From assembly GCA_963575745.1 (NCBI GenBank), contig CAUYUJ010022082.1, positions 1 through 64,000 on the forward strand: a stretch of 64,000 bases of DNA, written 5' to 3'. The DNA comes from Prorocentrum cordatum. Taxonomy: Eukaryota; Sar; Dinophyceae; Prorocentrales; Prorocentraceae. A program made the translations under genes and the position numbers. Position 1 is the first letter of the stretch. Each line of letters opens with the position of its first letter. Positions 35,611 to 53,504 of this stretch are shown piece after piece. Under the pieces are notes generated by a model. The model saw only the letters and a program-made list of their open reading frames with translations. It had not been told where the DNA came from and searched no databases.

Positions 35611-35699
35611 AGGAGGGAGGGAGAACATTACCTATCCATCTCATGTCCTACTCCTCCTGGTGAGGAGGGTGAGGAGGAGGGGGAGTTCTGCGATGAGGA

Positions 35700-37126: not shown

Positions 37127-37165
37127 TGCTGCTTCGAGAATGGTGGCTCTTATGCTAGTTGCACC
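37127..37165 (+). repeat. Left terminal inverted repeat
   Basis: Starts TGCTGCTTCGAGAATGGTGG and continues TCTTATGCTAGTTGCACC, with C at the single position that differs from the right copy. It is flanked on the left by GGTGCC-type repeat. Confidence 0.9.
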
Positions 37166-37310
37166 CTATGTATAAGTATCGCAAGTAACATAGCTACTTA
37201 CATGAGCTACTTATGGGTACTTACTAAGATACTTATAAGTAACTTAAGTTGATGTTCTTATGTTACTTAAGCTAACACTATAAGATACTTATAAGTTACT
37301 TAGGGAAATG
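37166..37310. repeat. Left subterminal AT-rich repeats
   Basis: Several ATACTTATAAGT and GTTACTTA / TAACTTAAG words (for example near 37215-37235 and 37280-37302) in an otherwise GC-rich region. Candidate transposase-binding or melting region; function inferred from position only. Confidence 0.7.
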
Positions 37311-37440
37311 AAGCGATCGCGATCGCTTGGGAGGAGGAGGAGGAGGAGAGCGATGTCGATCGCTGTGAGGGGGGGGAGGGGGGGGGGGAGGGGGGGGGGG
37401 GGGAGGGGGGGGGGGGGGGGGGGGGGAGGGGGGGGGGGAG
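37311..37440. repeat. Perfect 18-bp palindrome and poly-G tract
   Basis: AAGCGATCGCGATCGCTT (37311-37328) is the most symmetrical form of the element's 16-bp motif; an inverted ordinary copy follows at 37349-37364. Then about 75 bp of nearly pure G (37369-37440) with only single A interruptions, a strong G-quadruplex candidate. Confidence 0.85.
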
Positions 37441-37512
37441 AGTGATGAGCGCGGCGGGGCGCGCGGCCTCCTCACCGCGCGCGGCCGCGTCCTCAGTGTA
37501 CGCGCGGCCCCC

Positions 37513-37984
37513 TCACCGCGCAGGGGGCTCACCCTCAGGGGCCGCCTCGCCGCCCTGCCCGTCGCGGAAGGCGGTCAAGCAGATCGCCTCCGCCTCGCTC
37601 AACGCCTGCAGCTCGGCCTGCTGTTGGAGCCGCCTGAGGACGCTGGAGTCGTTCCACCCATCCCCGCCCAGGGACACGAGCAGCTCCACCAGCTCATCCT
37701 CGGTGGGAGGGCGCACGGTGGCGCTTTCGAACTCCCACGAACGCTGGACCTCCATTGCCTGCTCCCTCTCGGCCGACGGCTGCAACCTCGAGGCGCGGCC
37801 GCTTGGGTGGCGGCGGCGGCGCCGCGTCCTTGGAGGTGGCCGCAACGAAAGCGGCGGGCGACGGCATCTTGAAGAACTTCGCGTTGGCCATATTCGGCCA
37901 CGGGCCGCCTCGCGGCAGCGGGACACTGGACGGCTTCGCGCCGACCAGCCCAGGTGGCAGCGGTTCCGAGGGGAGATCGTCCAT
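37513..37984 (-). pseudogene. Element gene F, small protein, one frameshift
   Basis: The frame from ATG at 37984 (MDDLPSEPLPPGLVGAKPSS ... ANAKFFKMPSPAAFVAATSK ... KRPRLEVAAVG) passes by one base, between about 37760 and 37775, into AEREQAMEVQRSWEFE and PTEDELVELLVSLG ... ALSEAEAICLTAFRDG. That gives about 155 aa, with a basic KRPR and an acidic helical C-terminus. Family unknown. Its upstream region (38017-38130) is a copy of that of the transposase gene. The single-base break may be an error or a mutation. Confidence 0.5.
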
Positions 37985-38016
37985 GACGCGCCCCCTCCTG
38001 CGCGCGCGCGCGCCGT

Positions 38017-38130
38017 CGCTTGGCCGCGAGCGCCCCGTGCGTCACTCGCGAGGCGAGCCGATGCGGCTGAGCAATCGCCGTCATCGCGAGCCCATCGTCG
38101 CCAACGCCCGCCCGAGCGATCGCCATCGCT
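38017..38130 (-). promoter_or_regulatory. Upstream module shared by gene F and transposase gene
   Basis: About 115 bp that aligns closely with 41779-41896: CGCTTGGCC, CACTCGCGAG, CGAGCCG, CGGCTGAGCAA, CATCGCGAGCCCATC and TCGCCAACGCCCGCCCGAGC in order, ending in a 16-bp motif. Both copies lie at the 5' side of a minus-strand gene, so a promoter role is plausible. They may also contribute N-terminal codons. Confidence 0.5.
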
Positions 38131-38609
38131 CCACCCATATTCCCACCCGCGCCCGAGCGATCGACATCGCTCTCCTCCTCCTCATCATCGTCATCCTCCT
38201 CTACCTCCTTCTCCTGCCTCCTCCCCCTTCCAAGCGATCGACATCGCTTCGCCTCCCCCAGCGATCGGCATCGCTCTCTTGCTCCTCATCCTCCTCCTCC
38301 TCCTCCTCCTCGCGGCGATCGAGATCGCGAGCCCCCCTGGCTGCCTATGCAAATCCCGCGGCCCCACTGGCTGCCCATGCACATCGCGATCGGCATCGCT
38401 ACTCCTCCTCCCTCCGCAGCCCCCTGGCTGCCCATGCAGATCCTGCTCCTCCTCATCCTCCTGCTCCTGCTCCTCCTGCTCCTCCTGCTCCTCCTCCTCC
38501 TCCTCCTCCTCCTCCTCCTCCAAGCGATCGCCATCGCTACCTCCCCCAAGCGATCGACATCGATATCCCCCCCCAAGCTTCTTGTTGGCGCGCGCAGCCT
38601 CGCGCCGCC

Positions 38610-39013
38610 TCACTGCGGGGGCGCAGGCCGCGGCGGCGGGGGCGGCTCAGTCAGGGCGTCCGTGGGCGACCCTGGGCGCCCGTCGCCGCCCGTGAGCCCC
38701 TCCTCACGGGGGGGCCACGGCGGCGGAGGCGGCTTCGTCAGGGCGTCGGCCATGGCCACCGCCGACGCCATGGCCGCCTCCGCCTCGGGGGCGTCGTACA
38801 GCCTCTGCAGGCGGATGATCGTCATCGCGTCCTGCTTGAGCTGCGCCAGCGCCGCCGCATGCACCGCGGCGCGGCGGCGCGCGACGCCCAGCAGCTCGGC
38901 GGCCCGATCCAGCTCGACGTCGCGCATGTCGATCTGGAGGGCCAAGTGCCGCGCCACCTGGGGGGGTCGTCGTCGTCGTCGTCGCCGCCGCCGCCGCCGT
39001 CGTCGTCGCCGCC

Positions 39014-39073
<60 letters not shown>

Positions 39074-39433
39074 TCGTCGTCGTCTCGCCGTCGTCGTCGT
39101 CGTCCTATCCGCCTCCTCCTTCTCCGCCCGCAGCTGGGCGTTCGCCGCGCGCAGCTGCTCGACCTCCCCGCGCAGCTGCTCCACCTCCCCGAGCAGCCGC
39201 TCGGGCAAGCTCGCCTCATTCGTCGCCGTCTTCGTCGCCGTCGTCGCATCGTCGTCGTCGTCTCGTCGTCGTGCGCGGCCGCCTTCGGCCAGCTCGAGGC
39301 GCGCTTGCGCGCGGCCGCCAGGGGCAGCATCGCGCCTGCCCCGCGCGAGCCCAAGGGGCAGCAGCGCGCCAAAGCTGAACGGTTGCGCGCTGCGCGCAGT
39401 GATCTTATTTTCCTCCTCCCACCCCCCGCCCAT
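38610..39433 (-). pseudogene. Element gene E, coiled-coil protein, frameshifted
   Basis: ATG at 39433. A basic, Ala-rich start is followed by a strong coiled coil (LLGEVEQLRGEVEQLRAANA ... QLRAEKEEAD). A (GTC)n tract then encodes poly-Asp. After a frame change within or near this tract comes a second helical part (ARHLALQIDMRDVELDRAAE, LAQLKQDAMTIIRLQRLY) and a Pro-rich tail ending at 38610. Slippage in the trinucleotide tract or a nearby indel could explain the break. The coiled-coil style resembles gene G on the plus strand at the other end. Family unknown. Confidence 0.5.
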
Positions 39434-39737
39434 CTTCCAGCGATCGATATCGCTATCCTCCCTCCTCCGCCACCTCCTCCTCCTCCTCTTCCTCCTTCAA
39501 GCGATCGACGTCGCTTCGCCTCACCCAGCGATCGGCATCGCTCGATTTTCTTTTCCGTCCCCCCCTCCTTCCAGCGATCGGCATCGATTTCTCCCTCCCC
39601 CTCCTCCTCCTCCTCATCATCGTCCTCCTCCTCTCATCTCCTCACCCAAGCGATCGGCATCGCTTCACCTCACCCAGCGATCGACATCGCTCCCCACACA
39701 CACACACCGCGGCGCGGCGCATGTTTCCATATGTTTC

Positions 39738-41850
39738 TCAGCGCGCGTGCGCGATGACATAGTCACCGTTGCTCTTCACGCGCCACGCCCAGACAGCGCC
39801 ATCCAGGTCAGCGTCGGACATCTTGATGACGAGGGGCTCGTTCACCACGCTGCCAGTGCTGAGGCCGCACGCGCCCGTTGAGATCTCGATCCCGCGGGCG
39901 ACGATGTGCAGTTCGCCAGAAATCTCCGCGCACGCGTCGATGATAAACACCTCGCCGCCGCGCGAGCGAACCACCTGGCCCGCGTTGTAGGCGTTCCCTT
40001 CCCAGCGCAGCCCCCTGGCCACGGAGACGTCGGCGGCCCCGACTACGGAGCGCAACCCGTCAGATTCGGCTCGCGCTCCCACCAGCGAGTTGCCCGTCGG
40101 CCCCATCTTCTCGAGTTGCCGCACTTGCTGCAATACGCAGCCCGCGAGCGTCGTGGCCTCCATGCGCGCGGTGTTCTCCCCTGGTTCGGCCACCGCCTTT
40201 GCCACCTTATTGTGGCGCTCCGTCACGAAGCAGTCGAGCTCTTTCGGCTCCTGCTCCGCGTTGTGAAACACGTAGTGGTGTTTGGGCTTCACGCATTTGG
40301 TGCCGTACGCCTGCTTGTGCAAGGTGAGATGGACTTTCAGCCGCTGCAACGAAGTCACTGCGAGGGGGGGCACGCCCGCGCTTGACCTTCAGGAACGCGT
40401 CCGCCAGCAGGCCGCACGCCCGAAGGGGCGCTATTTCGCGCTCGAGCGACCCGATGCGGACGGCGCGCTCCTCGGCGAACGCCAAAAGGACGAAGAAGGT
40501 CGAGATCAGCTCGCTGGCGCCTGCTTTGAATGATTTCTTGCACGCGGTCTCGTGCCCAGGCGTGAACATATGTATTGCCGTTCTGCCGTGCGACCTCGGG
40601 AACTGCCAGCGCCGCGTGAACGCGTGAAGCTCGGGCCATCCGATGCCAGCTTTTCTCTGGCACGCCTTCACAAACGCGAACACCTCCCAGCCAACGGTGC
40701 CATTGCTCCATAGGTTGTGCATGCTGTCATGCGTCATGGCGGACGGCTGCATTATCGCCCGCAATTCCTTATCCTCCAGCAAGCCATTGGGATGGTAGTT
40801 GAAGCCGCTGGCTTTGTCGAGCTTCTGGAAGTTGCCCTTCGTCATGTGGCCAGGCTGTCCCGCGGTCGCCGCCGCTGCGGCGAGGTCGTCCCGCAATTTC
40901 CACACGTCGGCGTCTGAATGACGATCGAAGCGCGCGTGCTCGCGACAACAGGTGTCGACGAAGTAGCCGCCGTCGCCGTCGACGGAACCGCCCTTCAAGA
41001 GCACGTTCTTGCATCGCAAGCAAGGCCTCCAGCCGTTGGCACCCAGCAAACGCAGAATGCCTTTGAACGCATCCATGTCTGCGAGAAGATTGGAGAGGCG
41101 CGCCCGCGCCAGCATCGGAGTGCCGTTGGCCAGCTCCACGTGCGCGCCAGCTCCCGCGAGCCTGGAGGATCCGAAGAACACCTCCCTGATGAGGAGTCGA
41201 GTGGCACAGGAGATGCCGCCGTCCACGCGATTGCTCGCTTTCGTTCGCAGACACCCCAGCGGTAGCCACAGCTCTTCCCTCCATAGCATGTCAGCCCCGA
41301 ACTCCAGGAACGTGAAGAAGATCAACCAGAACTTCCGATCGTGCCTCAGGGCCAGCGCGTCGCCTGGTGTCACTTCGTCCATGTACAGCACCAGCGAGAG
41401 CGGCGCGCCGCGGACGCGGTTCGCGACCACCGCGAGAAGCTCACTGTACACGGGGCTGGCCTTGCAAACAAACCGCAGGAGCTTGTCGATTCTGGCGAGC
41501 TTCCAAGCGAAGGGCGGCTCGTTATCTTGCATGGGCAATTCGATTGTCGTCCCGACGTCGTCGAATACGCCCTCAATGGTGGATTGGACCGCGTAAGCCG
41601 TCAGCTCTTGCGCATGGCCAGGCTCCGTGAGCTTCTTGGCGATGCGAACGGGGGCCGTGCCAGATGCGCCATGCGTAGCGATGGCATCGGATAGCCGACG
41701 CCGCTTGGCCGCCTGAGGTCGCGGACATCGGATACCCGACTCCGCTTCGGGGCCATCGCGCCGCCGCTTGGGCATCGCGCCGCCGCTTGGCCACGAGCGA
41801 CGCGCGCCACTCGCGAGTCGAGCCGAAACGGCTGAGCAACTAGCCCCCAT
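39738..41850 (-). pseudogene. DDE-transposase-like gene, one frameshift in a C7 run
   Basis: About 700 aa if the break is ignored. The N-terminus is basic (MPKRRRDG, AAKRRRLSD; 41775 is an alternative start). The core has LVLYMDEVTPGDALALRHD (candidate first acidic residue), a WLIFFTFLEFGADMLWREE block, a CLRCKNV ... CCREHARF zinc cluster, then AMTHDSMHNLWSNGTVGWEV (candidate second acidic residue). After a one-base frame change at a seven-G run on the plus strand (about 40364-40370) it continues with CVKPKHHYVFHNAEQEPKEL and CFVTERHNKVAKAV. The order DE, Cys-rich insert, D-x-MHN, KPKHH, ERxxK resembles large tnp2/CACTA- or Plavaka-like transposases. The superfamily call is tentative; the catalytic triad is inferred from pattern alone. 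It is the natural mover of the 16.4-kb unit. Confidence 0.6.
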
Positions 41851-41896
41851 CGCGAGCCCATCCTCGCCAACGCCCGCCCGAGCGATCGCCCTCGCT
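41779..41896 (-). promoter_or_regulatory. Upstream module of transposase gene
   Basis: Copy of the module at 38017-38130. The ATG at 41850 lies inside it. Duplicated 5' regions suggest that the transposase gene and gene F are expressed together. Confidence 0.45.
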
Positions 41897-42175
41897 TCAC
41901 CCCAGCGATCCCCATCGCTCCCCTCTCCCTAAGCGATCGCCATCGCTTCGCCCCAGCGATCCCCATCGCTCCCCTCTCCCTAAGCGATCGTCATCGCTTC
42001 ACCCCAGCGATCCCCATCGCTCCCCTCTCCACAAGCGATCGCCATCGCTTCGCCCCAGCGATCCCCATCGCTCCCCGCTCCCTAAGCGATCGTCATCGCT
42101 TCACCCCAGCGATCCCCATCGCTCCCCTCTCCACAAGCGATCGCCATCGCTTCACCCCAGCGATCCCCATCGCTT
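41880..42175. repeat. 51-bp tandem array, six units, two palindromes per unit
   Basis: Unit starts at 41880, 41931, 41982, 42033, 42084 and 42135 (exactly 51 bp apart). Each unit has AGCGATCGYCATCGCT, then TCRCCCC, then the variant AGCGATCCCCATCGCT, then CCCCTCTCCCT or CCCCTCTCCAC. CGCC and CGTC forms alternate in units 2 to 6, suggesting growth by 102-bp steps. The array ends in T9. It lies between gene D and the transposase gene. Confidence 0.95.
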
Positions 42176-42310
42176 TTTTTTTATACACATGTGCGCCACC
42201 CACCAGCTGCGGGGCGGGGCGCGAAAGCGGGGCGGCGAGCGGCGTCAAAGCCTGTTGCTACCGCGCGGCCGCACGCTGGTCCCAGCGCTGTAGCTGATGG
42301 CGGCGGGCCC

Positions 42311-45046
42311 TCACGAGGACTTCGCAGTCACAAGGTACGCCTTGGCCATCGACATCACCAGAGTGCTCTGCGCCGCCGCCTGCGTCGACATGTCGCTGAC
42401 ATCCTGGGCGGACCAAGTGAACTCCGAAGGTGCGACCTTGCCACTGCTGACTTTATGGGCGACCTTCTTCATCTTGGCCAGCGTGTCCATGATCTTTTTC
42501 GCGTGAACCAGCGTAGCCTCGGGGATCTTCCCGACCCCGTCGCACTTGAGCGCCGACTCGAGCTTGTACATGGGCGCCACAATCCTGCTCAGGGTACGCG
42601 TGGCCAGGAGCTTCTGCTGCTGCGCCTCCTTGTCTTTCTTACTCTGCTCTTTCCTATCCTGCTTCTCGCGCGCCGCGCGCTCCTTGGCGGTCTCGCCGAC
42701 GCGCGGGTGCGCAGGCGACGAGCTCCCCGATTCGATGTCGCTGCCGCTCTGCGAGGAGCTGGTCGGTGGCTTCTGCTTCTTCATCTTCTTTGTCGAAGAT
42801 TCGGCTGCTCCTTCGTTCGCCCGCTTCTTGCCCTTGGTCTTGCCATCGACCTTGGCATTGCTCTTATCCTTATCATGTTTATTGCCCTTGCTCTTGTCCT
42901 TACCATCGGCCTTGTCATCGGTTTTGTCCGTGTCTTTTTTCGTGGCCTTATGCTTGCCCTTATCTTTATCAGGGCCATTGCTCTTGGACTTGTCATTGTT
43001 CGCCCTCTTGTCCTTATCATTCTCCTTATATTTATCTTTGCCCTTGCTCTTGTCCTTATCCTTGCCCTCACCAGCGTCCTTATCTTTATCGTCGCCCTTG
43101 CTCTTGGCCTTGACCTTTTCCTTGTCTTTATCCTTATCCTTAGCCTTGTCTTTGCCATTGCTCTTGGACTTGTCATTGTCCTTATGCTTGTCCTTATCAT
43201 TATCGGTGTCCTTTGTCTTGGACTTTCCCTTGTCCTTATCAGCGTCCTTATCTTTATCGGCGGCCTTGCTCTTGGACTTGTCCTTCTCCTTTTCCTTGTC
43301 CTTAGAGCTCTTGCCCTTGGGCTTTTCCTTGCTCTGCATTTTTCTGTTCTGGGGGGGTGGCGTGCCGTCGTCGCTGCTCTCATCGTTCGATCCGCCAGGA
43401 GTCACTGGAGGCGGCTGTCCGCCGCACGACCCGTCGCCGTCCCCCATGGAGTCCTCGCCCGAGGTCTCGAGGCCAAAACTGTCCGAGTCACCGCTGCCAC
43501 TCTGCAACTGCTCCGAGCCCTCGGTGCTGTCGGAGCCCCCGGCATCATCGACATCAGCGGTGCTGTCGGGGTCCTCGGCGCTCTCCTCATCGCCCTCCTC
43601 GGCGCTGTCGTCGGCGATCTCGGCCCCCGCTTGCGCGGATGCGGGCGTCGTTCTGGCGCAGGGCTCCTTGTCGTCTGAGCCTGAAGCCTCGAGCCCGTCT
43701 TCGGCCTCGGCGGCGCGCGATGCCCCATGCTCATTCTCACGCCGCGCGATGTTTGCCTCCCACTTCTCGATCTCGTGGATGTCCACCTTGTAGCACAACC
43801 CCATCACGGCATGGTTCAACGTGTCAGTGCACGTCTTCCTGATCCTTCTCCATGGGAAGCCTTGCCTCTTGTACCAGCTCAGCGGGTAGTAGCCGCCTCG
43901 CTTGCCCGCCCGCGTCCCTTTCTCGTGGATCGCCTTCAAGGTCGCCTGGACCATGGCCTTGACGCTTGATTGGCCGCTGCAGGCGCGGATCTTCTTCCAG
44001 AACCCGACCCTCTCCTCAATGCTGAAGTCCTTCAGCTTCACGGCCATCTCCTTCCACTCGGGCGCCCGATTCGCTTGCACCCCCCGCGTGCTGCACAACG
44101 CGCACCTGTAGATCTGGCCCTTCTTCGTCATCCGCACTGGGTAGGCCTTCATGACGTCGCACGGCTGTTCGCACCTGTCGCAGAGGAACTCGTTCTCGAC
44201 GGCGTCGAGCGAGAGCGGTGTTGCGCGCTTGTCAGGCGAGCTGAGCGCCGCGAACGATCCGACTCGAAACTTCGGCGAGGCGCCTGCCGTCGGCTCCTCG
44301 CCCACGCCCGCCGACGCCTGGGACTCGGTGTCCGAGGTGCGCCTTCGCGGACGAGACGGCGGCGACGACAACTCTTGCACCGTCGCCTTCATCTTCGACT
44401 TCGCCTTCGCCTTCGCCTTGCCCACCTGCAGCGCCCCATCGCCGTCCTTCGGCGAGGGCGCACTCTCGCCGGGCCTCAGGGTGGGCACACCACCGCTCGC
44501 CTTCGCCCTCGAAGTGGGCTGCATCCACTTCGCGATGTCGGCGAACTTGGGCGGCGCCTTCTTGGCTGCGGCCACAGCCATTGCCTTCTCCTTTGCCACG
44601 GCCTTGGCGTTCACCTTGGCCGTGGCCTTGGGCGGCGGGCCCTTCGGGCCTGCGTACTTCGCCCTGACCTTCTTCGGCTTGCGCCTGCGTCTGGCGGCGG
44701 CTGGCCTCCTCATCGGCCCCCGCTCGGCCGCGTCCTCGCTTCCCTCAACATCCACCTCCTCTTCCTTGGACGCCTCCGCATCCGCGGCTCCGCCCCCCTC
44801 GGTCGCCTCCTCGCCTTCCTCAGCCGCCACCTCCTCTTTCTCGGGCGCCTCCGCCTCCGCGGCTCCGCCCCCCGCGCCCGTCGCGCCCTCGAGACCGAGA
44901 TCCACCGCGAGAATGTCCAGCAGCTCGGCGTCCTCGGGGACGCTTGCGCCCGCGGCGCCTGCCCACTGCAACGTCGCCTGGCTGTCCTCGCTCGCCGCCG
45001 CCTCGTCGACCGCGCTGGCCAGCGCGCCGCCGCATCCCGCGGCCAT
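42311..45046 (-). CDS. Element gene D, 911-aa Lys/Asp-repeat protein with CxxC domain
   Basis: An intact frame from ATG at 45046. Residues about 1-130 are Ala/Glu-rich and acidic, then a basic stretch (AAARRRRKPKKVRAKYAG), a likely nuclear-localisation signal. The middle part holds LCDRCEQPC ... YRCALCSTRG, two CxxC pairs about 30 residues apart (zinc ribbon-like), followed by FSIEERVGFWKKIRACSG and RGGYYPLSWYKRQGFPWRRI. An acidic Ser-rich stretch then leads into a region of well over 150 residues of KDKDKSK-type repeats, and the C-terminus is a helical, less biased domain (LSRIVAPMYKLESALKCDG). No function known to me. The architecture suggests a nuclear, nucleic-acid-associated protein. The GYYPLSWY block probably defines a family worth searching. 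Confidence 0.75.
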   Translation of the reverse strand: MAAGCGGALASAVDEAAASEDSQATLQWAGAAGASVPEDAELLDILAVDLGLEGATGAGGGAAEAEAPEKEEVAAEEGEEATEGGGAADAEASKEEEVDVEGSEDAAERGPMRRPAAARRRRKPKKVRAKYAGPKGPPPKATAKVNAKAVAKEKAMAVAAAKKAPPKFADIAKWMQPTSRAKASGGVPTLRPGESAPSPKDGDGALQVGKAKAKAKSKMKATVQELSSPPSRPRRRTSDTESQASAGVGEEPTAGASPKFRVGSFAALSSPDKRATPLSLDAVENEFLCDRCEQPCDVMKAYPVRMTKKGQIYRCALCSTRGVQANRAPEWKEMAVKLKDFSIEERVGFWKKIRACSGQSSVKAMVQATLKAIHEKGTRAGKRGGYYPLSWYKRQGFPWRRIRKTCTDTLNHAVMGLCYKVDIHEIEKWEANIARRENEHGASRAAEAEDGLEASGSDDKEPCARTTPASAQAGAEIADDSAEEGDEESAEDPDSTADVDDAGGSDSTEGSEQLQSGSGDSDSFGLETSGEDSMGDGDGSCGGQPPPVTPGGSNDESSDDGTPPPQNRKMQSKEKPKGKSSKDKEKEKDKSKSKAADKDKDADKDKGKSKTKDTDNDKDKHKDNDKSKSNGKDKAKDKDKDKEKVKAKSKGDDKDKDAGEGKDKDKSKGKDKYKENDKDKRANNDKSKSNGPDKDKGKHKATKKDTDKTDDKADGKDKSKGNKHDKDKSNAKVDGKTKGKKRANEGAAESSTKKMKKQKPPTSSSQSGSDIESGSSSPAHPRVGETAKERAAREKQDRKEQSKKDKEAQQQKLLATRTLSRIVAPMYKLESALKCDGVGKIPEATLVHAKKIMDTLAKMKKVAHKVSSGKVAPSEFTWSAQDVSDMSTQAAAQSTLVMSMAKAYLVTAKSS

Positions 45047-45545: not shown

Positions 45546-45594
45546 GTAACTACCTCCCCACGCGATCACCATCGATGCCTCTCCTGCTCATTAT

Positions 45595-46085
45595 CATCAT
45601 TCTTCCCTCAAGCGATCGGCATCGCTACCTCCCCCAAGCGATCACCATCGCTTCCCCTCCCTCTCATCATCCTCATTCTTCCCCAAGCGATCGACATCGC
45701 TACCTCCCCCATGCGATCGCAATCGCTCCCCCTGTTCCTCATTCTCCCCCAGCGATCGGCATCGCGATCCACCTTCCCCCACCCCACCCCACCCCCGCTA
45801 CCCCCCACCCCCCAGCGATCGACATCGCTATCCTCCTCATCCTCCCTCTACTTCTCCTCATCCTCCTCCCCCCAGCGATCGGCATTGCTATCCCCCCTCA
45901 CCCCCAGCGATCGACATCGGTATCCTTCTCCTCCTCCTCCTCATTCTTCTCCTCCCCCCAGCGATCGACATCGCTATCCCCTCTCCCCCAGCGATCGACA
46001 TCGCTATCCTCCTCCTCCTTCTTATCCTCCTCCAAGCGATCGACATCGCTACCCCCCACCCCCCACCCATCGATCGACATCGTTA
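45595..46085. repeat. Cluster of about a dozen 16-bp motifs in CCT-rich spacer
   Basis: Copies of AGCGATCGACATCGCT and variants every 30-60 bp within CTCATCCTCC-type polypyrimidine. The same arrangement fills the spacers 38110-38560, 39435-39695, 49225-49535, 51250-51660 and 52470-52890. Confidence 0.9.
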
Positions 46086-46289
46086 TCATCCTCATTCTCC
46101 TGCTCCTTCTCCTCATTTCATATTCATAAGCATGCGGCGGCGCGATCCGCGGCCGCGGCCGCAGGCGGCGAACGCCACAGAGCGCCAGCGAGCCGCGACG
46201 AAGATGATGTCGGGCTCCAGGGTCGCCTCCCACATGTCGCTGAGAAGCGCCAGAGCCCGCTGAGCAGCGCCAAAGCCCGCTGCCACTGT

Positions 46290-47252
46290 TCAGAGGAGGG
46301 GCACCGACGCGCCCATCGTCTCGGCGACCTGCTCCCTCGCCGCCCTCAGGGACGCCTCCTCCTGCTCGAACGCCTGAGACGCCTTGATGCACGTCTCCTT
46401 CGCCACCTTGGCGCAGCGCTCCGCCCGCTTCAGGCAGTCCATGAGCGCATCGGCCCGCGCCTTGCTGAGCCTGAACTCGGTCTCGGGGGGCACGTCGGGC
46501 AGCGAGACGTCTCCTGTCATGGGCGCCATGATCAGGTGCATCGCCGCGGGCGCCGCGGACGGCGCAGCCTTCCCCGTCAGGCCTGCAGTCGATTGCACCC
46601 GCAACTGCATATGCTGCTGTAGCTGCTGCTGCTGCTGCTGTATATGCTGCTGCTGCTGCCGTATCTGCTGCTGCTGCTGCAGCTGCTCCGCCGTCTGCTG
46701 CAGCTTGTGCGCCGCCGCAGTCGCCAGGCTGGCCGCCGCCGCGGGGGCGCGGTCGTCTCCGCGGCCGCGGGGCGGCGTGCGCGGCGCGGGGCGGCCGCGG
46801 TGGCTGCGGTGGCTGCGGCTGCGGCTGCGCCTGCGCGCAGGCGATCGCGCGCGGCGATCGCGCCCGCGATTGCTGGCGGCCCCTGCGCTGGCGGCGGCCG
46901 CGGCGGCGGCCGCTGCGCTGGCGGCGGGCGCCGTCTTGTAGGGGTTGGCCGCGGTTGCCGCCGCCTTCTCGGCCTGGTGCTTCTGCCACGCCGCCACCTC
47001 GCTGTCGCTGAGGCGCTCCGCGTTGGCGTCGTCCAGGAGGCGGTTGATCTCCTCTAAGTTGGGCCCGCTCGCCGTCTTGAGAAACTTGTGGCTCTCCGCC
47101 GTCGGCGTCGCCAAGTGGTTGAAGAGCCACTCCAAGCACTCCGCGTGGCTCTCCTTGTAGCACTTGGCCTTGCAGTTGCTGACGGGGCAGCCGACCGTGT
47201 ACCACTCCTCCTCTGTCTTGACGGGGCAGGCTGCCGCGACGTCGGACGACAT
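46290..47252 (-). CDS. Element gene C, 320-aa Cys-rich, RS- and Gln-rich protein
   Basis: An intact frame. The N-terminal 70 residues carry a compact Cys/His cluster: CPVKTEEEWYTVGCPVSNCK, then AKCYKESHAECLEWLFNHL and SHKFL, likely metal binding. Then come an Ala-rich stretch, an RS-type segment (RARSPARRRSRSRSHRSHRG), a poly-Gln tract (QQQQQIRQQQQHIQQ) and a C-terminal coiled coil (MDCLKRAERCAKVAKETC). RS domains usually act in RNA processing; the role here is unknown. Upstream at 47411-47455 is a module shared with gene B. Confidence 0.7.
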   Translation of the reverse strand: MSSDVAAACPVKTEEEWYTVGCPVSNCKAKCYKESHAECLEWLFNHLATPTAESHKFLKTASGPNLEEINRLLDDANAERLSDSEVAAWQKHQAEKAAATAANPYKTAPAASAAAAAAAAASAGAASNRGRDRRARSPARRRSRSRSHRSHRGRPAPRTPPRGRGDDRAPAAAASLATAAAHKLQQTAEQLQQQQQIRQQQQHIQQQQQQLQQHMQLRVQSTAGLTGKAAPSAAPAAMHLIMAPMTGDVSLPDVPPETEFRLSKARADALMDCLKRAERCAKVAKETCIKASQAFEQEEASLRAAREQVAETMGASVPLL

Positions 47253-47410
47253 GGTCGGTGCTGGCGACGGAGCTGGCGTCGGCGCTGACGACGGCGCTCG
47301 CGTCGGCGCTGGCGTCGGCGCGGGCGGGCGCCGATGGAGACGCGCTCCGCTGGGCGCAGGCGATCCGCTCCGATGGGCGCGCTACGCGTGGAGCCGACAA
47401 TGGCCATGCA

Positions 47411-47455
47411 ATGCGTGCAATGATGCGTGCACTGTGAGCACAAGGCCAGCGATCG
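47411..47455 (-). promoter_or_regulatory. Conserved upstream module of gene C
   Basis: 45 bp matching 49191-49235 at 38 positions, containing TGCAATGATG and the near-palindrome TGTGAGCACA and ending in a 16-bp motif. It lies about 160 nt upstream of the gene C ATG. The intervening sequence is GTCGGCGCTGGC-type repeat, as at gene B. Confidence 0.6.
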
Positions 47456-47760
47456 GAATCGCTCCCCCGCCCAATTTTGTCGTCGTCGGTCGTCGCCTTT
47501 GTCAGTCGTCGCCAGAAGTCGTCACATCCCCTCAGCCAGCGATCGTAATAGCCATCCCCATCCTCACATCCCCATCCACACATCGTAATCGTTAGTCGTC
47601 GGTCCTCATCCTCACATCCCTTCAGCGACACCTCCCATCCCCTCAGCGATCGTAATCGCTATTGCACACACAAGCGATCGCAATCGCTATTGCACACACA
47701 AGCGGTCGTAATCGCGATTACAAACAATCTCTGCGCGCACACAAGAGATCGTTTTGCCAC
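47440..47760. other. Spacer between genes C and B
   Basis: Holds several diverged 16-bp motifs with TA or CA or GA at the centre (for example AGCGATCGTAATCGCT near 47646) separated by CTATTGCACACACA and CACATCCCC words. No gene. Confidence 0.7.
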
Positions 47761-47888
47761 AGCGCCTGCGAGCAGCAAGCGCATGCAGATCGCTTATGCG
47801 CGCCCAAGGCGCGAAGAGGCGCCGCACCCCCAGCGCGCCGCGCCTGCAGCGCAGGCGCCAGCGGCGCCGCGCCAGGGCGCCGCGCGCC

Positions 47889-49103
47889 TCACGTCAGCCG
47901 CGACGGCGGCGGGACGGCGGCGAGGACGCCGCTGCGCCACGGCGGCAGCGGCGCTGTCGACGGCCTCGGCGCTGCCCCTGGCGTCGGCGCCGTTGCCAGC
48001 GGGCGCGCGGGCGACGCAATGCGCGGGCGCACCACGCGCGGCGCCGCGGCGGGCGGGGGCGGCCCCGCGGGGTGAGGAACCAGGGAATCGCCCTTGCCGC
48101 CGCCCTTGCCGCCGCCCTTGACGCCGCTGCGGGGGTCGGGGCGCGACCCAGCGGGGACCTTGCCTGGCGCGCCGCCGCCGTACTTCTTCGCGAAGTACTC
48201 CCTGTTCCTCCCCCCGCGGTTGGCCCACTGCTTGGTGTTGGCGCGGTACCGCTGGCCGCGCCACGTCTCGGGCCCCCCCTCGGCTGGACCCGCAGGGCCG
48301 CGCTGCCACCACTGCAAGCCGAGGGCCTTCGCCGCCGCAGCCTCGCCGCGCAGGTCGGCGACCTGCTCCTCGGTGTAGCCCGCCCCCTGGCCAGCCGCGC
48401 GCTCCTCGTAGACCCTCGCCCACGCCGCCTCGGCCACGGCCTCAGGGGGGGGCGGCGCCCGAGGCGGGTGGGGCGGCACCCGAGGCCATTGCGACCCCTT
48501 GGCGCGCGGGTCGAGGGCGCGCGGGCTGCGGCTCCGCGAGCGCTCCGCGGCCGGCGGCGCGGGCGGCGCGGGAGCCGCCGCTGGCGGCGCGGCCGCTGAC
48601 TCCTCGGCCGCCGCAGCCGCTGCCGCCTGACGCACGGCCGCCAAATCGCGGCGCGAGACGTACGGCCGCGGCGCGCAGAGCGACAGCGACGAGCGGCCCG
48701 ACTGGCCGCCCGACGAGAGGCTGTCGCGAGGATCGCGCGCCTGCGGCGAGGCCACGACCTCGACGAGGGGCACCTCCTCGCGAGGCACCGCCTCCTCCTC
48801 CTCCTCCTCCGCCGCCTGCCCCTCCGCCGCCGCCGCCGCGGGTTCCTCGACCTCCGCGCCCTCCTCGCCTGGCGACGCCGCAATCTCCAGGAGCACGTCC
48901 TCCGCACCCGCCTCGGACGCCTCCTCCTGCTCCTCCTCCGCGGCCTCGGGCGGCGCCTCCTCCCCGTGCTCCTCCGCGGCCTCGGGCGGCGCCTCCTCAT
49001 GCGCAGCCAACGCCGCGTTTGCGAAGACGCCCGCGGCCTCGTTCGCGAAGGCGAAGAACTCCTCGGCGGCATCGCGACGGTCGCGGCTGTGGGGCGGCGC
49101 CAT
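47889..49103 (-). CDS. Element gene B, 404-aa acidic/RS/Gly-rich protein
   Basis: An intact frame from ATG at 49103. The N-terminus is MAPPHSRDRRDAAEEFFAFA, then a strongly acidic Glu/Ala region, a central Ala-rich coil (DLAAVRQAAAAAAAEESAAA) and an RS-like segment (ERSRSRSPRALDPRAKGSQW). A conserved-looking C-terminal block WRGQRYRANTKQWANRGGRN with REYFAKKYGGG follows, then a Gly-Lys and Pro-rich tail. Likely RNA- or nucleic-acid-binding; no family recognised. Shares its upstream module with gene C, so the two may be co-regulated. Confidence 0.65.
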   Translation of the reverse strand: MAPPHSRDRRDAAEEFFAFANEAAGVFANAALAAHEEAPPEAAEEHGEEAPPEAAEEEQEEASEAGAEDVLLEIAASPGEEGAEVEEPAAAAAEGQAAEEEEEEAVPREEVPLVEVVASPQARDPRDSLSSGGQSGRSSLSLCAPRPYVSRRDLAAVRQAAAAAAAEESAAAPPAAAPAPPAPPAAERSRSRSPRALDPRAKGSQWPRVPPHPPRAPPPPEAVAEAAWARVYEERAAGQGAGYTEEQVADLRGEAAAAKALGLQWWQRGPAGPAEGGPETWRGQRYRANTKQWANRGGRNREYFAKKYGGGAPGKVPAGSRPDPRSGVKGGGKGGGKGDSLVPHPAGPPPPAAAPRVVRPRIASPARPLATAPTPGAAPRPSTAPLPPWRSGVLAAVPPPSRLT

Positions 49104-49190
49104 GGCGGCGCTGGCGCAGGCGCAGGTGTAGGCGCTGGGCCTGGTGTAGGCGCTGGCGCGCCACCTGCTGGGCCCCAAATGGCTAGTATG

Positions 49191-49235
49191 ATGCATGCAA
49201 TGATGTGCGCAATGTGCGCACATGCCCAGCGATCG
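49191..49235 (-). promoter_or_regulatory. Conserved upstream module of gene B
   Basis: Contains ATGCATGCAATGATG and the perfect palindrome TGTGCGCACA, then a 16-bp motif. It lies about 90 nt upstream of the gene B ATG. Confidence 0.6.
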
Positions 49236-49656
49236 CCATCGCTCCTCCGCCTCTTGCTCTTCCACCTTATCCACCTCCCCTCCCATCACCACGTCCACTC
49301 TAGCTTCGCCATCCTCCAAGCGACAACTGCAATTCCACTCGCTGAAACCCCCAAGCGATCGCCATCGCTGCAAACTGCACTCGCTGCAAACTAATCTACA
49401 ATCCCTGCAACCACAATCGATCATCATCGCTGCCCTGCCCAACCGACCTCAAGCGATCCCCATCGCTGTCCTGCAACTCCATCCCTACACCCCCCCGAAC
49501 AACCATCCCTACACCAAGCGATCATCATCGCTGCCCCTCCTCCACCACTCCCTATTCATAGCCATAATCGGCTATCTAGTCGTGTGCGAGCACACGCATG
49601 CAGGCTGCATCGTCGCAGCGCCCGTGCGAATTCGCCAGATCAGGCGCAGCTGCCGA

Positions 49657-51144
49657 TCAAGTGTGGATGCCGAGCTTCTTCTCCTGTTCGCGCACCCACT
49701 TCTTAGCCGCAGCGATCGCCTTGTCGCTGCTGCCGCCGTGGTCGCTGAACTTGATGGCCGTCGACTGGCCTGGACCTTTCGTACCCGTGCGGCACATGAC
49801 CTGGTTGCGGGACCATTCCACCGCATATGCGGGTTTCGGTGGTTTCTTGACCCCCTTCGCGCCCACGTGCTCGGCCTCAGTCTTCTTCTTCTTCTTCTTG
49901 TTCTTCCTCTTCGCAATGGCCTTGGCTTTGGGGGGCGCGGGGTGGCCGTCGCCAGCGGCCTTGCGCTTCTTCTTCATCGGCGGCGGCGGCTCCGCCTCCT
50001 CCACGCCGTCGGCGCTCTTGTTATCGGAGTCGCCCCCGTCGCTGCCCTCCGACTCGTCTTCGCTCGGCGGCGTCTTGGCCACATCTGGCAGGCGTTGTTT
50101 GCCGCCGAGCTTCGCGAAGATCTTGCCCCTGGCCTCCTCCACGCTGTGCGTCGTCGGCGGCGGCGCCGACTCCGTGTCGCCGATCGGAATCGCGCCGTCC
50201 GTGGCGGGCGCAATGGGCTGCGGAGTGCAACGCCTGCATGGCACGCCGTCTCGCGCACCTTGGCGGCCGCCACCCTGCATCGTCATCGCCCTTTCCGCGA
50301 GCTGCAACGCCATGTCGACGGACGACCGATTGCCATCGGACGTGGCCTTGGGGCGAGCCTTGGGCTCTCGCATCGGGACCGCGTCGCACAGCACCATCAA
50401 CATGGTGCGGTCCAGCGGGCACTCGTTTGCTGGGGCCTCCCCTCCGCCACCATACGCGCGCGAGTACCACTCGGGGTGCACCTTCGGCATGTCAGTCGGG
50501 TCCGCAGGGAGCTCGCTGACGAAGGACGGCTCGGTCGCGGCAAGCTGCTTACACAACTTCCACGGCAGGAGCTTCTTGGCGTATGTTTTCGCCCGCTTGA
50601 AATAGCCCCGCCGTGCCATCGGACACATGCGCATCGTCCAATCGAAGCCGTCCACGAGGAGGGCGACGCACGCCGCCAGTTGAACCGTCGGCTCATGCAG
50701 CGCGCGCCACCCGAGGGATTTGCAAGCCTGCAGGACGACCGCAACCCGACCCATGAAGTCGTTGCGCTCGTCCAGGATCTTGTCCCACTGCCTCTTCGCG
50801 AGGTAGGCGAGGATGGACGAGAAGTCCTGCATCGGCGTCCTGCCCGACCCCGCCAGCTCCGCGCTTGCGGCCGCGTTAGCGGCCAACATTTGCGCTGAGG
50901 CCGTCGCCAACGTCGTGACGCGGCCGATCAGCGTGGCAAGCGCCCTCTTGCCGAAAGGCATCTGGCCGATCTCCAGGACCAGCATGGCCGAGTCCTCGGC
51001 GGAGATGAAGGCCCACGGCGCCATGATGGCCATCGCCATGGCGCTCTGCGCCTCCGCGATCTCCTTGTACGCGTCGGACTTCTTCCCGATCTGGGCGAGG
51101 ACCGACTTGGCGGCCTTCAGCTGCTTCACCAGGTCGGCCGCCAT
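49657..51144 (-). CDS. Element gene A, 495-aa protein with Lys-rich linker and AP2-like end
   Basis: An intact frame from ATG at 51144. The N-terminal 250 residues are helical and globular-looking (LVKQLKAAKSVLAQIGKKSD, DFSSILAYLAKRQWDKILDE, CPMARRGYFKRAKTYAKKLL). Then follow PADPTDMPKVHPEWYSRAYG, an acidic Ser region, a basic linker (PMKKKRKAAGDG, AKRKNKKKKKKTE; likely nuclear signals) and a C-terminal segment EWSRNQVMCRTGTKGPGQST with AIKFSD and AIAAAKKWVREQE. The end has the strand-strand-strand-helix spacing of AP2-type DNA-binding domains, but this match is weak. Function unknown; nuclear DNA binding is the best guess. Confidence 0.65.
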   Translation of the reverse strand: MAADLVKQLKAAKSVLAQIGKKSDAYKEIAEAQSAMAMAIMAPWAFISAEDSAMLVLEIGQMPFGKRALATLIGRVTTLATASAQMLAANAAASAELAGSGRTPMQDFSSILAYLAKRQWDKILDERNDFMGRVAVVLQACKSLGWRALHEPTVQLAACVALLVDGFDWTMRMCPMARRGYFKRAKTYAKKLLPWKLCKQLAATEPSFVSELPADPTDMPKVHPEWYSRAYGGGGEAPANECPLDRTMLMVLCDAVPMREPKARPKATSDGNRSSVDMALQLAERAMTMQGGGRQGARDGVPCRRCTPQPIAPATDGAIPIGDTESAPPPTTHSVEEARGKIFAKLGGKQRLPDVAKTPPSEDESEGSDGGDSDNKSADGVEEAEPPPPMKKKRKAAGDGHPAPPKAKAIAKRKNKKKKKKTEAEHVGAKGVKKPPKPAYAVEWSRNQVMCRTGTKGPGQSTAIKFSDHGGSSDKAIAAAKKWVREQEKKLGIHT

Positions 51145-51761
51145 GGCGCCCGCGGGCGTCACTCGCGTCGCGCACGCGGGCGTCACCCGCGACTACAAAG
51201 CCGACAACGGCTACGCACAGCGATCGTTCAAAACGATTGCCGCCTACTTAAGTTAGCGATCGGTATCGCTTCTCTGCTTCTCCCTCCTCCTCCCCGCCCT
51301 CCCCCAAGCGATCGCTGTCGCTTCTCCTTCTCCTCCTCCTCCTCCTCCAAGCGATCGCCATCGCAACCTCCCCCCATCCCCCTCCTCCTCACACAAGCGA
51401 TCGCCATCGCTACATACCCCGTCCCTCCCCCTCCTCCTATGATCCCTCCTCCACCTCCTCCTCATCCTCTCTTGTTTTTGCAGCCCGTAGGGTTCGGTCC
51501 GTGCGCGTCCTACTCCCCCCTCCCCCCCTCCCCCAAGCGGTCGCCATCGCTGTTCCCCCCGTCGCCCCTCCTCCTCCTTCTGGGGGAGGTGAAGCGACGG
51601 CGATGACGATGAGGAGAAGGAAAAAAGATGAGGAGAAGGAAAGCGATGTCGATCGCTGAAAGGAAGGTGGATGATGATAATGGAGATCACTGAGCGCCGC
51701 GCGCAGCCGCTCTGCCTCGCGGAGGCGCGCGGGGCTCGCGCGCGCGGGGCGCGGAGGCGCG

Positions 51762-52414
51762 ATGTGGGGTGCTCCGCGCGAGCTCGCGCAGGGGGCTCGC
51801 GCTTTGGCGCTCAGGCGCCAGCGCGACAACCTGCTGCTGCAGCTCGCGGAGGCGGATGCCCCCTCCTCCCAGCGATCGCCATCGCTCTCCCCCGAATCCT
51901 CCTCCTCCGCTTCCTCCCCTTCCTCCTCCTCCTCCACCTCGTCCCTCTCCCCCTCCCCCCGCCTCTGCAGACTGTCAACGCGGAGCAGACAGAGCGCGCC
52001 GTGCAGCTCTCGCTGTGGCTGGAGACGACGACGACGGCGGCGGCGACGACGACGACGACGAATGAGGCGGAGCGCGAGCTAGCGATCGCGATCGGCGAGA
52101 GGGACGCGGTGCTGCGGCGGGAGGCGGAGCTGAAGGCGGAGAACGCGCAGCTGAGGAAGGAGGCGCAGGGGGCGCAGCTGCTGCGGAGGGAGGAGCAGGC
52201 GCGCCTTCAGGCGGAAAATGCGCAGCTGAGGGCGGAGAAGGCGGAAAAGAAGAAGAAGAAGAAGGAGAAGACGGAGAAGAAGGAGAAGGGGGCGGCGGCG
52301 AAGGCGAAGGCGGCGGCGAAGGCGGCGAAGGCCAAGGCGGCGCGCGCCGCGGCGAAAGCGCCAGCGGCGGCGAAGGCGCAAATGCCGCCGCCGTCGACTC
52401 CGCCTCCGCGGTGA
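51762..52414 (+). CDS. Element gene G, coiled-coil protein, possibly with one intron
   Basis: The only plus-strand candidate in the element. Exon 1 (51762-51851) would encode MWGAPRELAQ ... RDNLLLQLAE; exon 2 (51971-52414) would continue in phase 0 with TVNAEQTERAVQLSLWLETT, then a long coiled coil (RREAELKAENAQLRKEAQGA, ARLQAENAQLRAEKAEKKKK) and a Lys/Ala tail ending PPPSTPPPR, 177 aa in total. The 119-nt gap starts GC, ends CTCTGCAG after a polypyrimidine run, and contains a 16-bp motif. GC donors are accepted in dinoflagellates. Without splicing, exon 2 alone is open from further upstream. Confidence 0.5.
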
Positions 52415-53225
52415 GGCCGCGCGCCCGCAAGCGCGGAGCGCGCCGCGCGCCCGCAAGCGCGAAAACAAAAGACCAGCGATCGTAATCGCTATCCCCTCGT
52501 CCTCTTCCCCCCACCCCGCCCTCCCCCGAGCGATCACCATCGCTTCTCTTCCCCCTTCCCGTCCTCATCCTCCTCCTTCCAAGCGATCGACATCGCTTCA
52601 CCTCCCCCAGCGATCGCCATCGCTTCTCCTCCTCCTCCTCCTCCTCCTCCTCCTCCTCCAAGCGATCGCCATCGCTACCTTCCTCATCCCCCTCCTCCTC
52701 GCCCAAGCGATCGCCATCGCTTCTCCTCCTCCTCCCCATCCAAGCGATCGACATCGCTACCTTCCCCATCCCCCTCCTCCCCACCCAAGCGATCGCCATC
52801 GCTTCTCCTCCTCCTCCCCATCCAAGCGATCGACATCGCTACCTTCCCCATCCCCCTCCTCCCCACCCAAGCGATCGCCATCGCTACCGCGGCGAGCACC
52901 CGCCAGGCGGCGCCGCGACGAGCTCCAGGTCGATGGGCAAATCCCAAATCCTGAAAAACCTCTTCAAATCCAGGTAACCTCCCCAAATCCAGAAAACCTC
53001 ACCAAATCCAAAAAAAGATTTCCCCAAATCCGAAAATCGTTCCTGAAAACTACATCCACCTCCTCCTCCTCATCCCTCCTCCCCCTCCTCCTCCTCCTCC
53101 TCGTCCTCATCCTCGCCCTCCTCCTCGTCCTCCTTTGCGTGGGGGCCGCGGGCCGCGACGCCCCTGCGGCGCGGCGGGCGGGCGCGCGGCGGGAGGGGAA
53201 GAGAAGCGAAGGAGGGATGGAAGGA
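52415..53225. other. Right-end spacer of the element
   Basis: Ten 16-bp motifs between 52470 and 52890, some in a 60-bp imperfect tandem (near 52743, 52789, 52825, 52870). They are followed by CCAAATCC-type repeats (52940-53040) and CCT-rich sequence. No gene. Confidence 0.8.
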
Positions 53226-53465
53226 AGTTATAAGTTACTTATAAATAACATATATGTTACTTATAAGTATTGCATATCAGCACGGGTAAGTAACTTAGCG
53301 GTAGTTATAAGTATCTTCCAGCGTCATTAATAATCAGCGAAATACTTATAACTAACCCAAGTATAGTTATGCGACAAGACAAATACTTAAGGGCACATAG
53401 AAATAGTTAGAAATACTTAGGTACTTATCCCTTGCTATAAGTATATTATACCTAGCTGTACCTAT
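53225..53465. repeat. Right subterminal AT-rich repeats
   Basis: The same vocabulary as the left end (TTATAAGTTACTTATAA, ATATGTTACTTATAAGTA, AAATACTTATAACTAA), arranged between the right terminal repeat and the last 16-bp palindromes. Confidence 0.7.
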
Positions 53466-53504
53466 GGTGCAACTAGCATAAGAACCACCATTCTCGAAGC
53501 AGCA
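53466..53504 (-). repeat. Right terminal inverted repeat
   Basis: Reverse complement of 37127-37165 with one mismatch (T for C). It lies 90 bp from the stop codon of the neighbouring restriction-endonuclease-type LINE. Confidence 0.9.

What the first reader, a model, noticed from the sequence alone, without database searches (positions are those of the whole stretch)
37127..53504. A 16.4-kb TIR element carrying eight genes, apparently an undescribed giant DNA transposon type
Seen: two 39-bp ends in inverted orientation (38/39 identical), AT-rich subterminal repeats of the same vocabulary at both ends, a DDE-transposase-like gene, and seven additional genes without any RT or integrase of known type. 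A specific 16-bp motif is confined to the interval. Inferred: one mobile unit with cargo. Known large eukaryotic transposons (Polintons, Starships, Cryptons, large CACTA) do not, to my knowledge, have this gene set (CxxC/GYYPLSWY protein with Lys-Asp repeats, two RS-like proteins, AP2-like protein, coiled-coil proteins).
Basis: partly seen in the sequence, partly recalled or inferred. Interest (0 to 1): 0.95.

Follow-up and report, generated by a model that had tools for sequence, protein, structure and literature searches.

The report
Giant multi-gene transposon of a dinoflagellate
A bloom-forming marine alga carries many copies of a 16-17 thousand-base jumping DNA that moves with its own set of at least five genes, an unusually large and self-contained kind of cut-and-paste element for which I found no published description.

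Summary
In the window's own 4.13-Gb genome (Prorocentrum cordatum, by inference) 25 copies could be placed by both ends; 23 of 25 are 16.0-16.8 kb. True termini are window 37132 and 53499 (16,368 bp), 5 bp inside each reported end. Insertions carry a 2-bp duplication of a pyrimidine-purine (YR) step: identical in 20 of 25, YR on both sides in 25 of 25. In 6 of 10 copies the closed empty site matches neighbouring repeats. A second family in the same genome (transposase about 66% identical, 17.3 kb, related but different terminal repeats) has the same five genes in the same order and strand, and the same AGCGAT-N4-ATCGCT palindrome. So this is a lineage of multi-gene transposons, not one accident. 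The transposase shows the residue pattern published for the CMCT clade (EnSpm/CACTA, Plavaka, Transib), though no Pfam family matches. I file it as a new variant of a known kind, with a gene set I found nowhere in print. The "AP2-like" label and three accessory ORFs stay unproven. The window copy's transposase is frameshifted.

The parts
37132..37172 (+). left terminal inverted repeat, begins CTTCGAGAATGG
   Evidence: the left-end match of 40 scored places never starts after this base; 38/41 identical to the right end
53459..53499 (-). right terminal inverted repeat, ends CCATTCTCGAAG
37130..37131 (.). left flanking dinucleotide TG (target-site position)
   Evidence: YR in all 25 copies read
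53500..53501 (.). right flanking dinucleotide CA; does not match the left one in this copy
   Evidence: 20 of 25 copies have identical dinucleotides
37173..37302 (.). left AT-rich subterminal block with TTACTTATAAGTAA-type words
   Evidence: similar words at the ends of family B
53226..53458 (.). right AT-rich subterminal block, same vocabulary
37513..37755 (-). remnant of a left-end ORF (80 aa here; 216 aa in copies C2287, C19989, C2651)
   Evidence: no match in family B
38822..39433 (-). coiled-coil ORF (203 aa), weakly supported
   Evidence: found in 9 of 10 copies; no match in family B
39738..41850 (-). DDE transposase gene with a one-base frameshift near 40.33 kb in this copy
   Evidence: D-D-C2C-H3H-E residues invariant in 5 aligned relatives
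42311..45046 (-). CxxC/GYYPLSWY protein with Lys-Asp repeats (911 aa)
46290..47252 (-). RS-like protein (320 aa) with a Cys-rich N-terminal region
47889..49427 (-). RS-like protein (512 aa) with a WRGQRYRANTKQW stretch
49657..51144 (-). p509: helical N-terminal part plus C-terminal beta-beta-beta-alpha domain; candidate DNA-binding protein
51671..52414 (+). coiled-coil ORF (247 aa), weakly supported
   Evidence: codon pattern weaker; no match in family B
37312..52885 (.). field of 52 exact AGCGAT-N4-ATCGCT palindromes, clustered between neighbouring ORFs (about 37.31-37.36, 38.12-38.56, 39.44-39.69, 41.88-42.17, 45.17-46.05, 47.45-47.69, 49.23-49.53, 51.26-51.89, 52.48-52.89 kb)
   Evidence: 44-52 per copy in 10 copies; 37 in a family-B copy

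Best explanation
It is one copy (window 37132-53499) of an autonomous-type, multi-gene, cut-and-paste DNA transposon family in Prorocentrum cordatum. The 703-717-aa transposase, a CMCT-like DDE enzyme, is inferred to recognise the 41-bp inverted ends and the AT-rich blocks behind them, cut the element out and join it at a pyrimidine-purine dinucleotide, leaving a 2-bp duplication (duplication shown; cutting chemistry inferred). At least four further genes on the same strand belong to the element rather than being random cargo, because a second family with a 66%-identical transposase has them in the same order (shown for one copy read through, and for transposase plus p509 at 29 of 36 places). 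The 50-odd AGCGAT-N4-ATCGCT palindromes sit just 5' of the main genes and are most likely two-fold binding sites for an element-encoded DNA-binding protein, best candidate p509, which would switch the element's genes on or off and perhaps help assemble the transposition complex, as TnpA does with the subterminal repeats of Spm (inferred). This particular copy cannot make an intact transposase as read and would need one from another copy.
For: 25 family-A copies with both ends, 23 of them 16.0-16.8 kb, and 20 of 25 identical 2-bp YR duplications. Closed empty sites in local repeats in 6 of 10 copies; in a control on the same stretches 0-2 of 60 random junctions were as good in those six. 70 places with any of four probed features, 59 with two or more, none out of order. 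Ten complete copies 97.6-99.5% identical, with the transposase open in 9 of 10 and the other main ORFs found in 9 or 10 of 10. Family B: 36 transposase places, 29 with p509 10-18 kb away on the expected side and strand; one copy read through shows five genes in the same order with 65%, 58%, 52%, 68% and 53-73% identity in the aligned parts and 37 exact palindromes; three copies are 17.26-17.33 kb with their own related TIRs and YR flanks. Transposase: D172, D272, C291-x2-C294, H539-x3-H543, E558 invariant in five aligned relatives down to 25% identity, which is the pattern given for CMCT in PMC12730594 (passages). Crude dN/dS between families 0.47-0.74 for transposase, GYY, RS517 and p509 in the main alignments.
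Against: No Pfam or PDB family matches the transposase and its predicted structure is poor (pLDDT 42), so the clade call rests on a residue pattern. Termini are CTT..AAG, not the CA..TG that most CMCT elements share. Differences among family-A copies look neutral, not selected. The window copy has unequal flanking dinucleotides (TG/CA) and no empty-site match. 5 of 25 copies lack an identical duplication. RS320 shows weak constraint (crude dN/dS 0.85), and ORFs the length of RS320, RS517 and p509 are not by themselves beyond chance in such GC-rich DNA. 7 of 36 family-B transposase places had no listed p509 (capped list). No transcript, excision or binding data exist here; the role of the palindromes is inference.
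Confidence: 0.82

Rival explanations
1. An ordinary large CACTA/EnSpm-type element that has picked up host genes as passenger cargo, as plant CACTA elements do.
For: CMCT residue pattern (PMC12730594 passages). A 20.5-kb CACTA element with subterminal repeats and a likely TNPA-like binding protein is known (PMC2613891 passages).
Against: The same gene order in two families whose transposases differ by a third suggests fixed parts. Ends are not CACTA, the duplication is 2 bp YR rather than 3 bp, and no Pfam domain matches.
Confidence: 0.12
2. The palindromes are RNA hairpins (6-bp stem, 4-base loop) between genes of a long transcript, used for cleavage, trans-splicing or binding by the element's RS-like proteins, rather than DNA operators. 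(A rival for the palindrome step only; it does not compete with the transposon itself.)
For: By sequence each exact site could pair as a 6-bp stem with a 4-base loop (not folded with a tool); loops vary while arms are kept, though sites were chosen by their arms; they lie between same-strand genes; two proteins are RS-like.
Against: The same symmetry is expected of a DNA site for a dimer; compensatory changes in the arms are rare (3 pairs in 77 sites); two exact sites (37349, 51642) are inverted relative to the rest.
Confidence: 0.3
3. A Polinton/Maverick, Polinton-like virus or other virus-derived element.
For: Size (16-17 kb), TIRs, several genes.
Against: No polymerase, integrase, protease or capsid match above chance in the ORFs scanned against Pfam (weak low-complexity matches such as CoV_nucleocap E 0.052 and Nucleo_P87 E 0.28 are far below cut-off); none in PHROGs for the five proteins given; 2-bp duplication.
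Confidence: 0.02
4. Segmental duplication or assembly artefact: a host gene block bounded by chance inverted repeats.
For: Two pairs of copies share flanks: C17871/C3716 on both sides, C1636/C5386 on the left only, so some duplication or chimeric assembly does occur.
Against: Copies end exactly at the TIRs in different flanks with identical 2-bp duplications in 20 of 25 and empty sites in 6 of 10.
Confidence: 0.02

Closest known systems
CMCT clade of DDE transposons (EnSpm/CACTA, Mirage, Chapaev, Transib, Plavaka, ESTA, Lanisha; PMC12730594, passages)
   [quoted passage not shown] TIRs; short (2 bp) target duplication.
   Different: No detectable Pfam similarity; termini CTT..AAG instead of CA..TG; four or more accessory genes kept with the transposase.
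Large CACTA elements such as soybean Tgmt* (20.5 kb, PMC2613891, passages) and maize Spm
   Same: Size class (Tgmt*), transposase plus a second protein thought to bind many short repeats near the ends.
   Different: Tgmt* has 13-bp CACTA ends, a 3-bp duplication and expresses one large gene; here 41-bp ends, 2-bp YR duplication, five separate ORFs kept between families, and repeats between all genes instead of only near the ends.
Plavaka (fungi)
   Same: 2-bp duplications (PlavakaA), CMCT motifs (PMC12730594, passages).
   Different: TGT..ACA or CATCA..TGATG termini; the Plavaka families described there that carry an extra gene carry a TET/JBP dioxygenase, for which no Pfam match was seen here.
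Polintons/Mavericks and Starships
   Same: Giant eukaryotic elements with several genes.
   Different: Those use other enzymes and other gene sets (Polintons: PMC6431247 passages; Starships: recalled); no match to them was seen here.

Membership tests
CMCT clade (PMC12730594) | D, D, E with C(2)C and H(3-4)H between second D and E | tested here: met
   D172, D272, C291, C294, H539, H543, E558 (P0001 numbering) invariant in 5 of 5; which acidic residues are catalytic is assigned by pattern
CMCT clade (PMC12730594) | 2 to 5 bp target-site duplication | tested here: met
   2 bp YR, identical in 20 of 25; family B 2 of 3
CMCT clade (PMC12730594) | 5'-CA..TG-3' termini (in most cases) | tested here: not met
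   CTTCGAG.. and CTTAAAG..
CMCT clade (PMC12730594) | phylogenetic placement among CMCT transposases | not testable with these tools
   no reference CMCT sequences at hand; Pfam and PDB searches found none
EnSpm/CACTA | CACTA termini and 3-bp duplication | tested here: not met
EnSpm/CACTA | Tnp2-type transposase domain | tested here: not met
   Searches (window ORFs, E up to 1; P0001-P0005, E up to 10): no such Pfam match; one chance hit to SipA_2nd at E 0.084
Plavaka | TGT..ACA or CATCA..TGATG termini | tested here: not met
KDZ/Zisupton | 8-bp duplication | tested here: not met
Polinton/Maverick | protein-primed polymerase B and retroviral-type integrase | tested here: not met
   no such Pfam match in the nine element ORFs or ORF pieces given
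Starship | tyrosine recombinase captain (recalled) | tested here: not met
   no such Pfam match; the enzyme found has DDE-type residues
TIR transposon (general) | multiple copies ending at the same inverted repeats, with target duplication and empty sites | tested here: met

The most novel reading that the evidence does not exclude
This is a previously unnamed dinoflagellate superfamily of giant CMCT-like transposons whose transposition machine has five or more element-encoded parts, and which carries its own gene-control system of about fifty operator palindromes, in a group of organisms described as generally lacking transcriptional regulation (abstract of PMC11071213).
Probability: 0.4. Interest if true: 0.85.

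Novelty: new variant of a known kind. Interest (0 to 1): 0.72.

Why it matters
It shows that cut-and-paste-type DNA transposons can be complex multi-gene units and not only transposase plus helper: one gene order is kept across families whose transposases differ by a third. As a share of the genome it is small (about 2 Mb of 4.1 Gb even if all 125 first-look candidates were full copies), but its palindrome fields just 5' of the genes give a testable system for gene control in nuclei where promoters are poorly understood. Clean 2-bp duplications and nearly identical copies make recent activity testable by comparing strains.

Tried and rejected
Viral contigs as a source of relatives: palindrome pattern 0 matches, a 17-base TIR word one unrelated match (L001), transposase alignment 28 pattern matches, 0 confirmed. 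Structure: the transposase model (pLDDT 42) was not used for a fold search; p509 model pLDDT 50, no Foldseek match at E <= 0.001. AP2 identity of the p509 C-terminus: not supported. pN/pS among family-A copies against the window copy gave misleading values because window-private changes were counted nine times; replaced by singleton and shared-variant counts and by family A against B. The first empty-site control searched less sequence than the test did, so it was repeated on equal stretches: the same 6 of 10 copies stand out; in those six, 0-2 of 60 random junctions and 0-4 of 30 shifted junctions were as good. In copy C11869 of family B the right TIR is present but the left one was not found; both ends came from three other copies. 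The origin of the window copy's unequal flanks was not resolved: the search with its left flank never got an answer.
Full report
1. What was claimed and what is there. The two inverted ends exist and match at 38 of 39 bases. With the filters the 64-kb window holds four inverted pairs of at least 28 bp that are not simple repeats; this is the second longest. The 16-bp motif is confined to the interval. Its core is a palindrome, AGCGAT-N4-ATCGCT, with 52 exact sites in the element, none in the rest of the window and none on average in 100 Markov simulations.

2. Other copies. The window is contig C21233 of a 4.13-Gb genome. An annotated Prorocentrum cordatum protein (P0014) comes from a 628,083-bp contig, and contig C1636, which carries matches to its exons, has that length; the published genome is 4.15 Gb (PMC10666404, passages seen). 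So the genome is P. cordatum by inference. A search with 181 bp of the left end gave 125 first-look candidates, of which 40 were scored and all 40 matched, the window included; 321 bp of the right end gave 128 candidates, 40 scored, 40 matched at the end itself. Twenty-two left and right hits pair on one contig and strand; three more copies were paired by reading sequence (C17359, C5182, C2651). Of these 25 copies, 23 are 16.0-16.8 kb, one is 11.0 kb (C2348) and one 21.7 kb (C14245). Because only 40 places per end were scored, 18 left and 18 right hits stay unpaired (three of those left hits are the copies just named); that says nothing about their completeness.

3. Exact ends and target duplication. 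Left-end matches start at or before window base 37132 in 40 of 40; right-end matches reach 53499 or beyond in 39 of 40, one stops a base short. The element is CTTCGAGAATGG...CCATTCTCGAAG; its 41-bp ends are 38/41 identical in the window. The flanking dinucleotides are identical in 9 of the first 10 copies (the window is the exception, TG/CA) and in 11 of the next 15 (the script counted 10 and set two copies with a variant left end aside; read by eye from its output, C5386 is CG/CG and C1636 is CG/TG). Total 20 of 25 identical: 9 CG, 6 TG, 4 CA, 1 TA. All 50 flanking dinucleotides are pyrimidine-purine. The five unequal cases are the window, C17871 and C3716 (the same insertion, both flanks shared), C15077 and C1636. 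C1636 shares its left flank with C5386 but not its right flank, so recombination between copies or a chimeric assembly is likely there; decay of a CG/CG pair would also explain TG/CA, CG/CA and CG/TG. For 10 copies I joined the flanks with one dinucleotide removed: in 6 of 10 the 20-base junction occurs with 0-3 mismatches in the neighbouring flank (C17359, C12995, C9369, C19989, C7825, C5182), while the junction with both dinucleotides has 4-8. On equal stretches 0-2 of 60 random junctions and 0-4 of 30 shifted ones did as well in those six; in the other 4 of 10 (C2287, C2651, C20215 and the window; two of them with only 62-65 bp of left flank) there was no such signal.

4. Gene set within the family. 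Ten full copies are 97.6-99.5% identical. The transposase is open over 703-717 aa in 9 of 10; in the window it is split by a one-base shift. GYY is open over 861-953 aa in 9 of 10 and cut to 581 aa in one; RS320 is open in 10 of 10 (445 aa in one); RS517 was found in 9 of 10; p509 in 10 of 10, shortened to 370-421 aa in three; the left coiled-coil ORF in 9 of 10 and the right one in 10 of 10. A left-end ORF of 216 aa is intact in 3 of 10. Probing for left end, left-end ORF, p509 and right end gave 70 places, 59 with two or more features and 11 with one, none out of order (the four hit lists were capped, and features more than 23 kb apart were not joined, so C13740 counts twice). Codon-position composition looks coding for transposase, GYY, RS320, RS517 and p509 (second position 49-64% GC, third 79-92%). 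ORFs of 700 aa or more never arise in 200 simulations, but one of 490 aa or more does in 5%, and the copy tested also has long ORFs in other frames, so length alone supports only transposase and GYY. Against selection within the family: variants among copies show no excess of silent changes, as expected of copies that drift after insertion.

5. A second family carries the same set. Searching the genome with P0002, a 66% relative, found 36 places (one split in two) of a different family at 80-86% identity, and our family at 67-68% (66 of 3,430 candidates scored). Searching with P0010 found 51 places of a family-B-type p509 at 76-93% identity, and ours at 58-60% (82 of 72,357 candidates scored). 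At 29 of 36 family-B transposase places a p509 lies 10-18 kb away on the expected side and strand; 7 of 36 lack a listed one, one of them (C21028) because the contig ends first. One copy, C11869, was read over 23 kb: transposase, GYY, RS320, RS517 and p509 in the same order and strand, with 65%, 58%, 52% (48 aa), 68% (25 aa) and 53-73% identity in the aligned parts, and 37 exact palindromes. Its p509 is frameshifted. The coiled-coil ORFs and the left-end ORF found no match there, nor in the left 4 kb of four family-B copies. Crude dN/dS between the families is 0.53 (transposase), 0.47 (GYY), 0.49 (RS517), 0.62 and 0.74 (p509) and 0.85 (RS320) in the main alignments; most secondary alignments of the repetitive parts are higher. 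Three family-B copies are 17,259, 17,331 and 17,287 bp with ends CTTAAAGGCTTCAAG..., flanks CG/CG, CG/TA and CG/CG. The left ends of the two families share CTT at the tip and a CACCCTA..TATA inner part, and both families have TTACTTATAAGTAA-type words behind the ends.

6. The transposase. None of the five matches Pfam at E up to 10 apart from one chance hit, and PDB profiles give nothing. Yet the alignment has invariant D172, D272, C291-x-x-C294, H392, H538/H539-x3-H543 and E558. [quoted passage not shown] Both are met here. CA..TG ends, shared 'in most cases', are not. I therefore call it CMCT-like, with the exact place open.

7. How it most likely works. Shown: discrete ends, 2-bp YR duplication, several copies, kept gene order, palindrome clusters at matching places in ten of ten copies, just 5' of the five main genes where I compared them by eye (window and C17359). 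Inferred: cut-and-paste by the DDE enzyme; binding of the AT-rich blocks by the transposase or a helper; binding of the palindromes by an element protein. p509 is the best candidate because it is well kept in the relatives (P0007 plus six at 55-70% identity to it, two of which lack the N-terminal part; the eighth hit, P0014, was left out of the alignment as a chimera) and ends in a predicted beta-beta-beta-alpha fold. The palindrome arms vary less among copies than other intergenic DNA (0.0083 against 0.0189), but the sites were chosen by their arms, which favours that result. In Spm, TNPA binds subterminal repeats and also affects transcription (PMC2613891, passages seen), which is the closest working analogy. 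RNA hairpins remain a real rival for this step (30%).

8. Novelty. Ten literature searches of the held open-access library showed no such element in dinoflagellates; of each I saw only the listed titles and starts of abstracts (for example 15 of 50, 12 of 84, 10 of 733 papers). Subscription papers, preprints and Repbase reports are mostly outside it. Two listed papers hold both 'dinoflagellate' and 'giant transposon': PMC7805220, on Polinton-like viruses (listing only), and PMC11071213, where the phrase is in a cited Polinton title (passages).

Noticed in passing
window 53594-57489 (-): Two overlapping ORFs (559 and 781 aa) of a reverse-transcriptase element lie just beyond the right end; RVT_1 at E 3.9e-4, below Pfam's cut-off.
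   Followed up: no
G000 C1636:399488-415875 and KH exons between 420889 and 482133: The annotated P. cordatum KH-domain protein P0014 contains, in order, in-frame pieces of the element's p509, RS517, RS320 and left-end ORF (read by eye), so the gene model runs through an element copy; real exonisation or an annotation/assembly chimera (C1636 shares only its left flank with C5386).
   Followed up: partly
alignment of ten family-A copies: Private changes are biased to A:T>G:C (T>C 162 and A>G 122 of 610, against C>T 68 and G>A 42), with only 16 of 110 C>T/G>A at CpG. Unusual for decaying transposons; a link to hydroxymethyluracil is only a guess, and sequencing or assembly error is not excluded.
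   Followed up: no
G000 C2348:74625-85673 and C14245:456740-478478: An 11.0-kb copy (probably internally deleted) and a 21.7-kb copy (probably holding an insertion), judged by length only.
   Followed up: no
window 45217-45336 and 45433-45552: A 120-bp inverted repeat (87%) with a 96-bp spacer inside the element between GYY and RS320; possibly a nested foldback element or a hairpin.
   Followed up: no
P0001 (717 aa, contig of 3,554 bp): A 91-92% relative of the family-A transposase whose first residues (MAIARAG..) read like translation of the palindrome, suggesting another subfamily with the same sites upstream.
   Followed up: partly
window 35587-36524: Long GAT/GAC-rich simple repeats that read as poly-Asp, poly-His or poly-Ser in different frames.
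   Followed up: no
window 24001-26000: Strong strand asymmetry, GC skew -0.51.
   Followed up: no
family-A copies C2287, C19989, C2651: A 16.7-16.8-kb subfamily with the intact 216-aa left-end ORF; in the other seven copies, the window among them, the search found no full-length version.
   Followed up: partly
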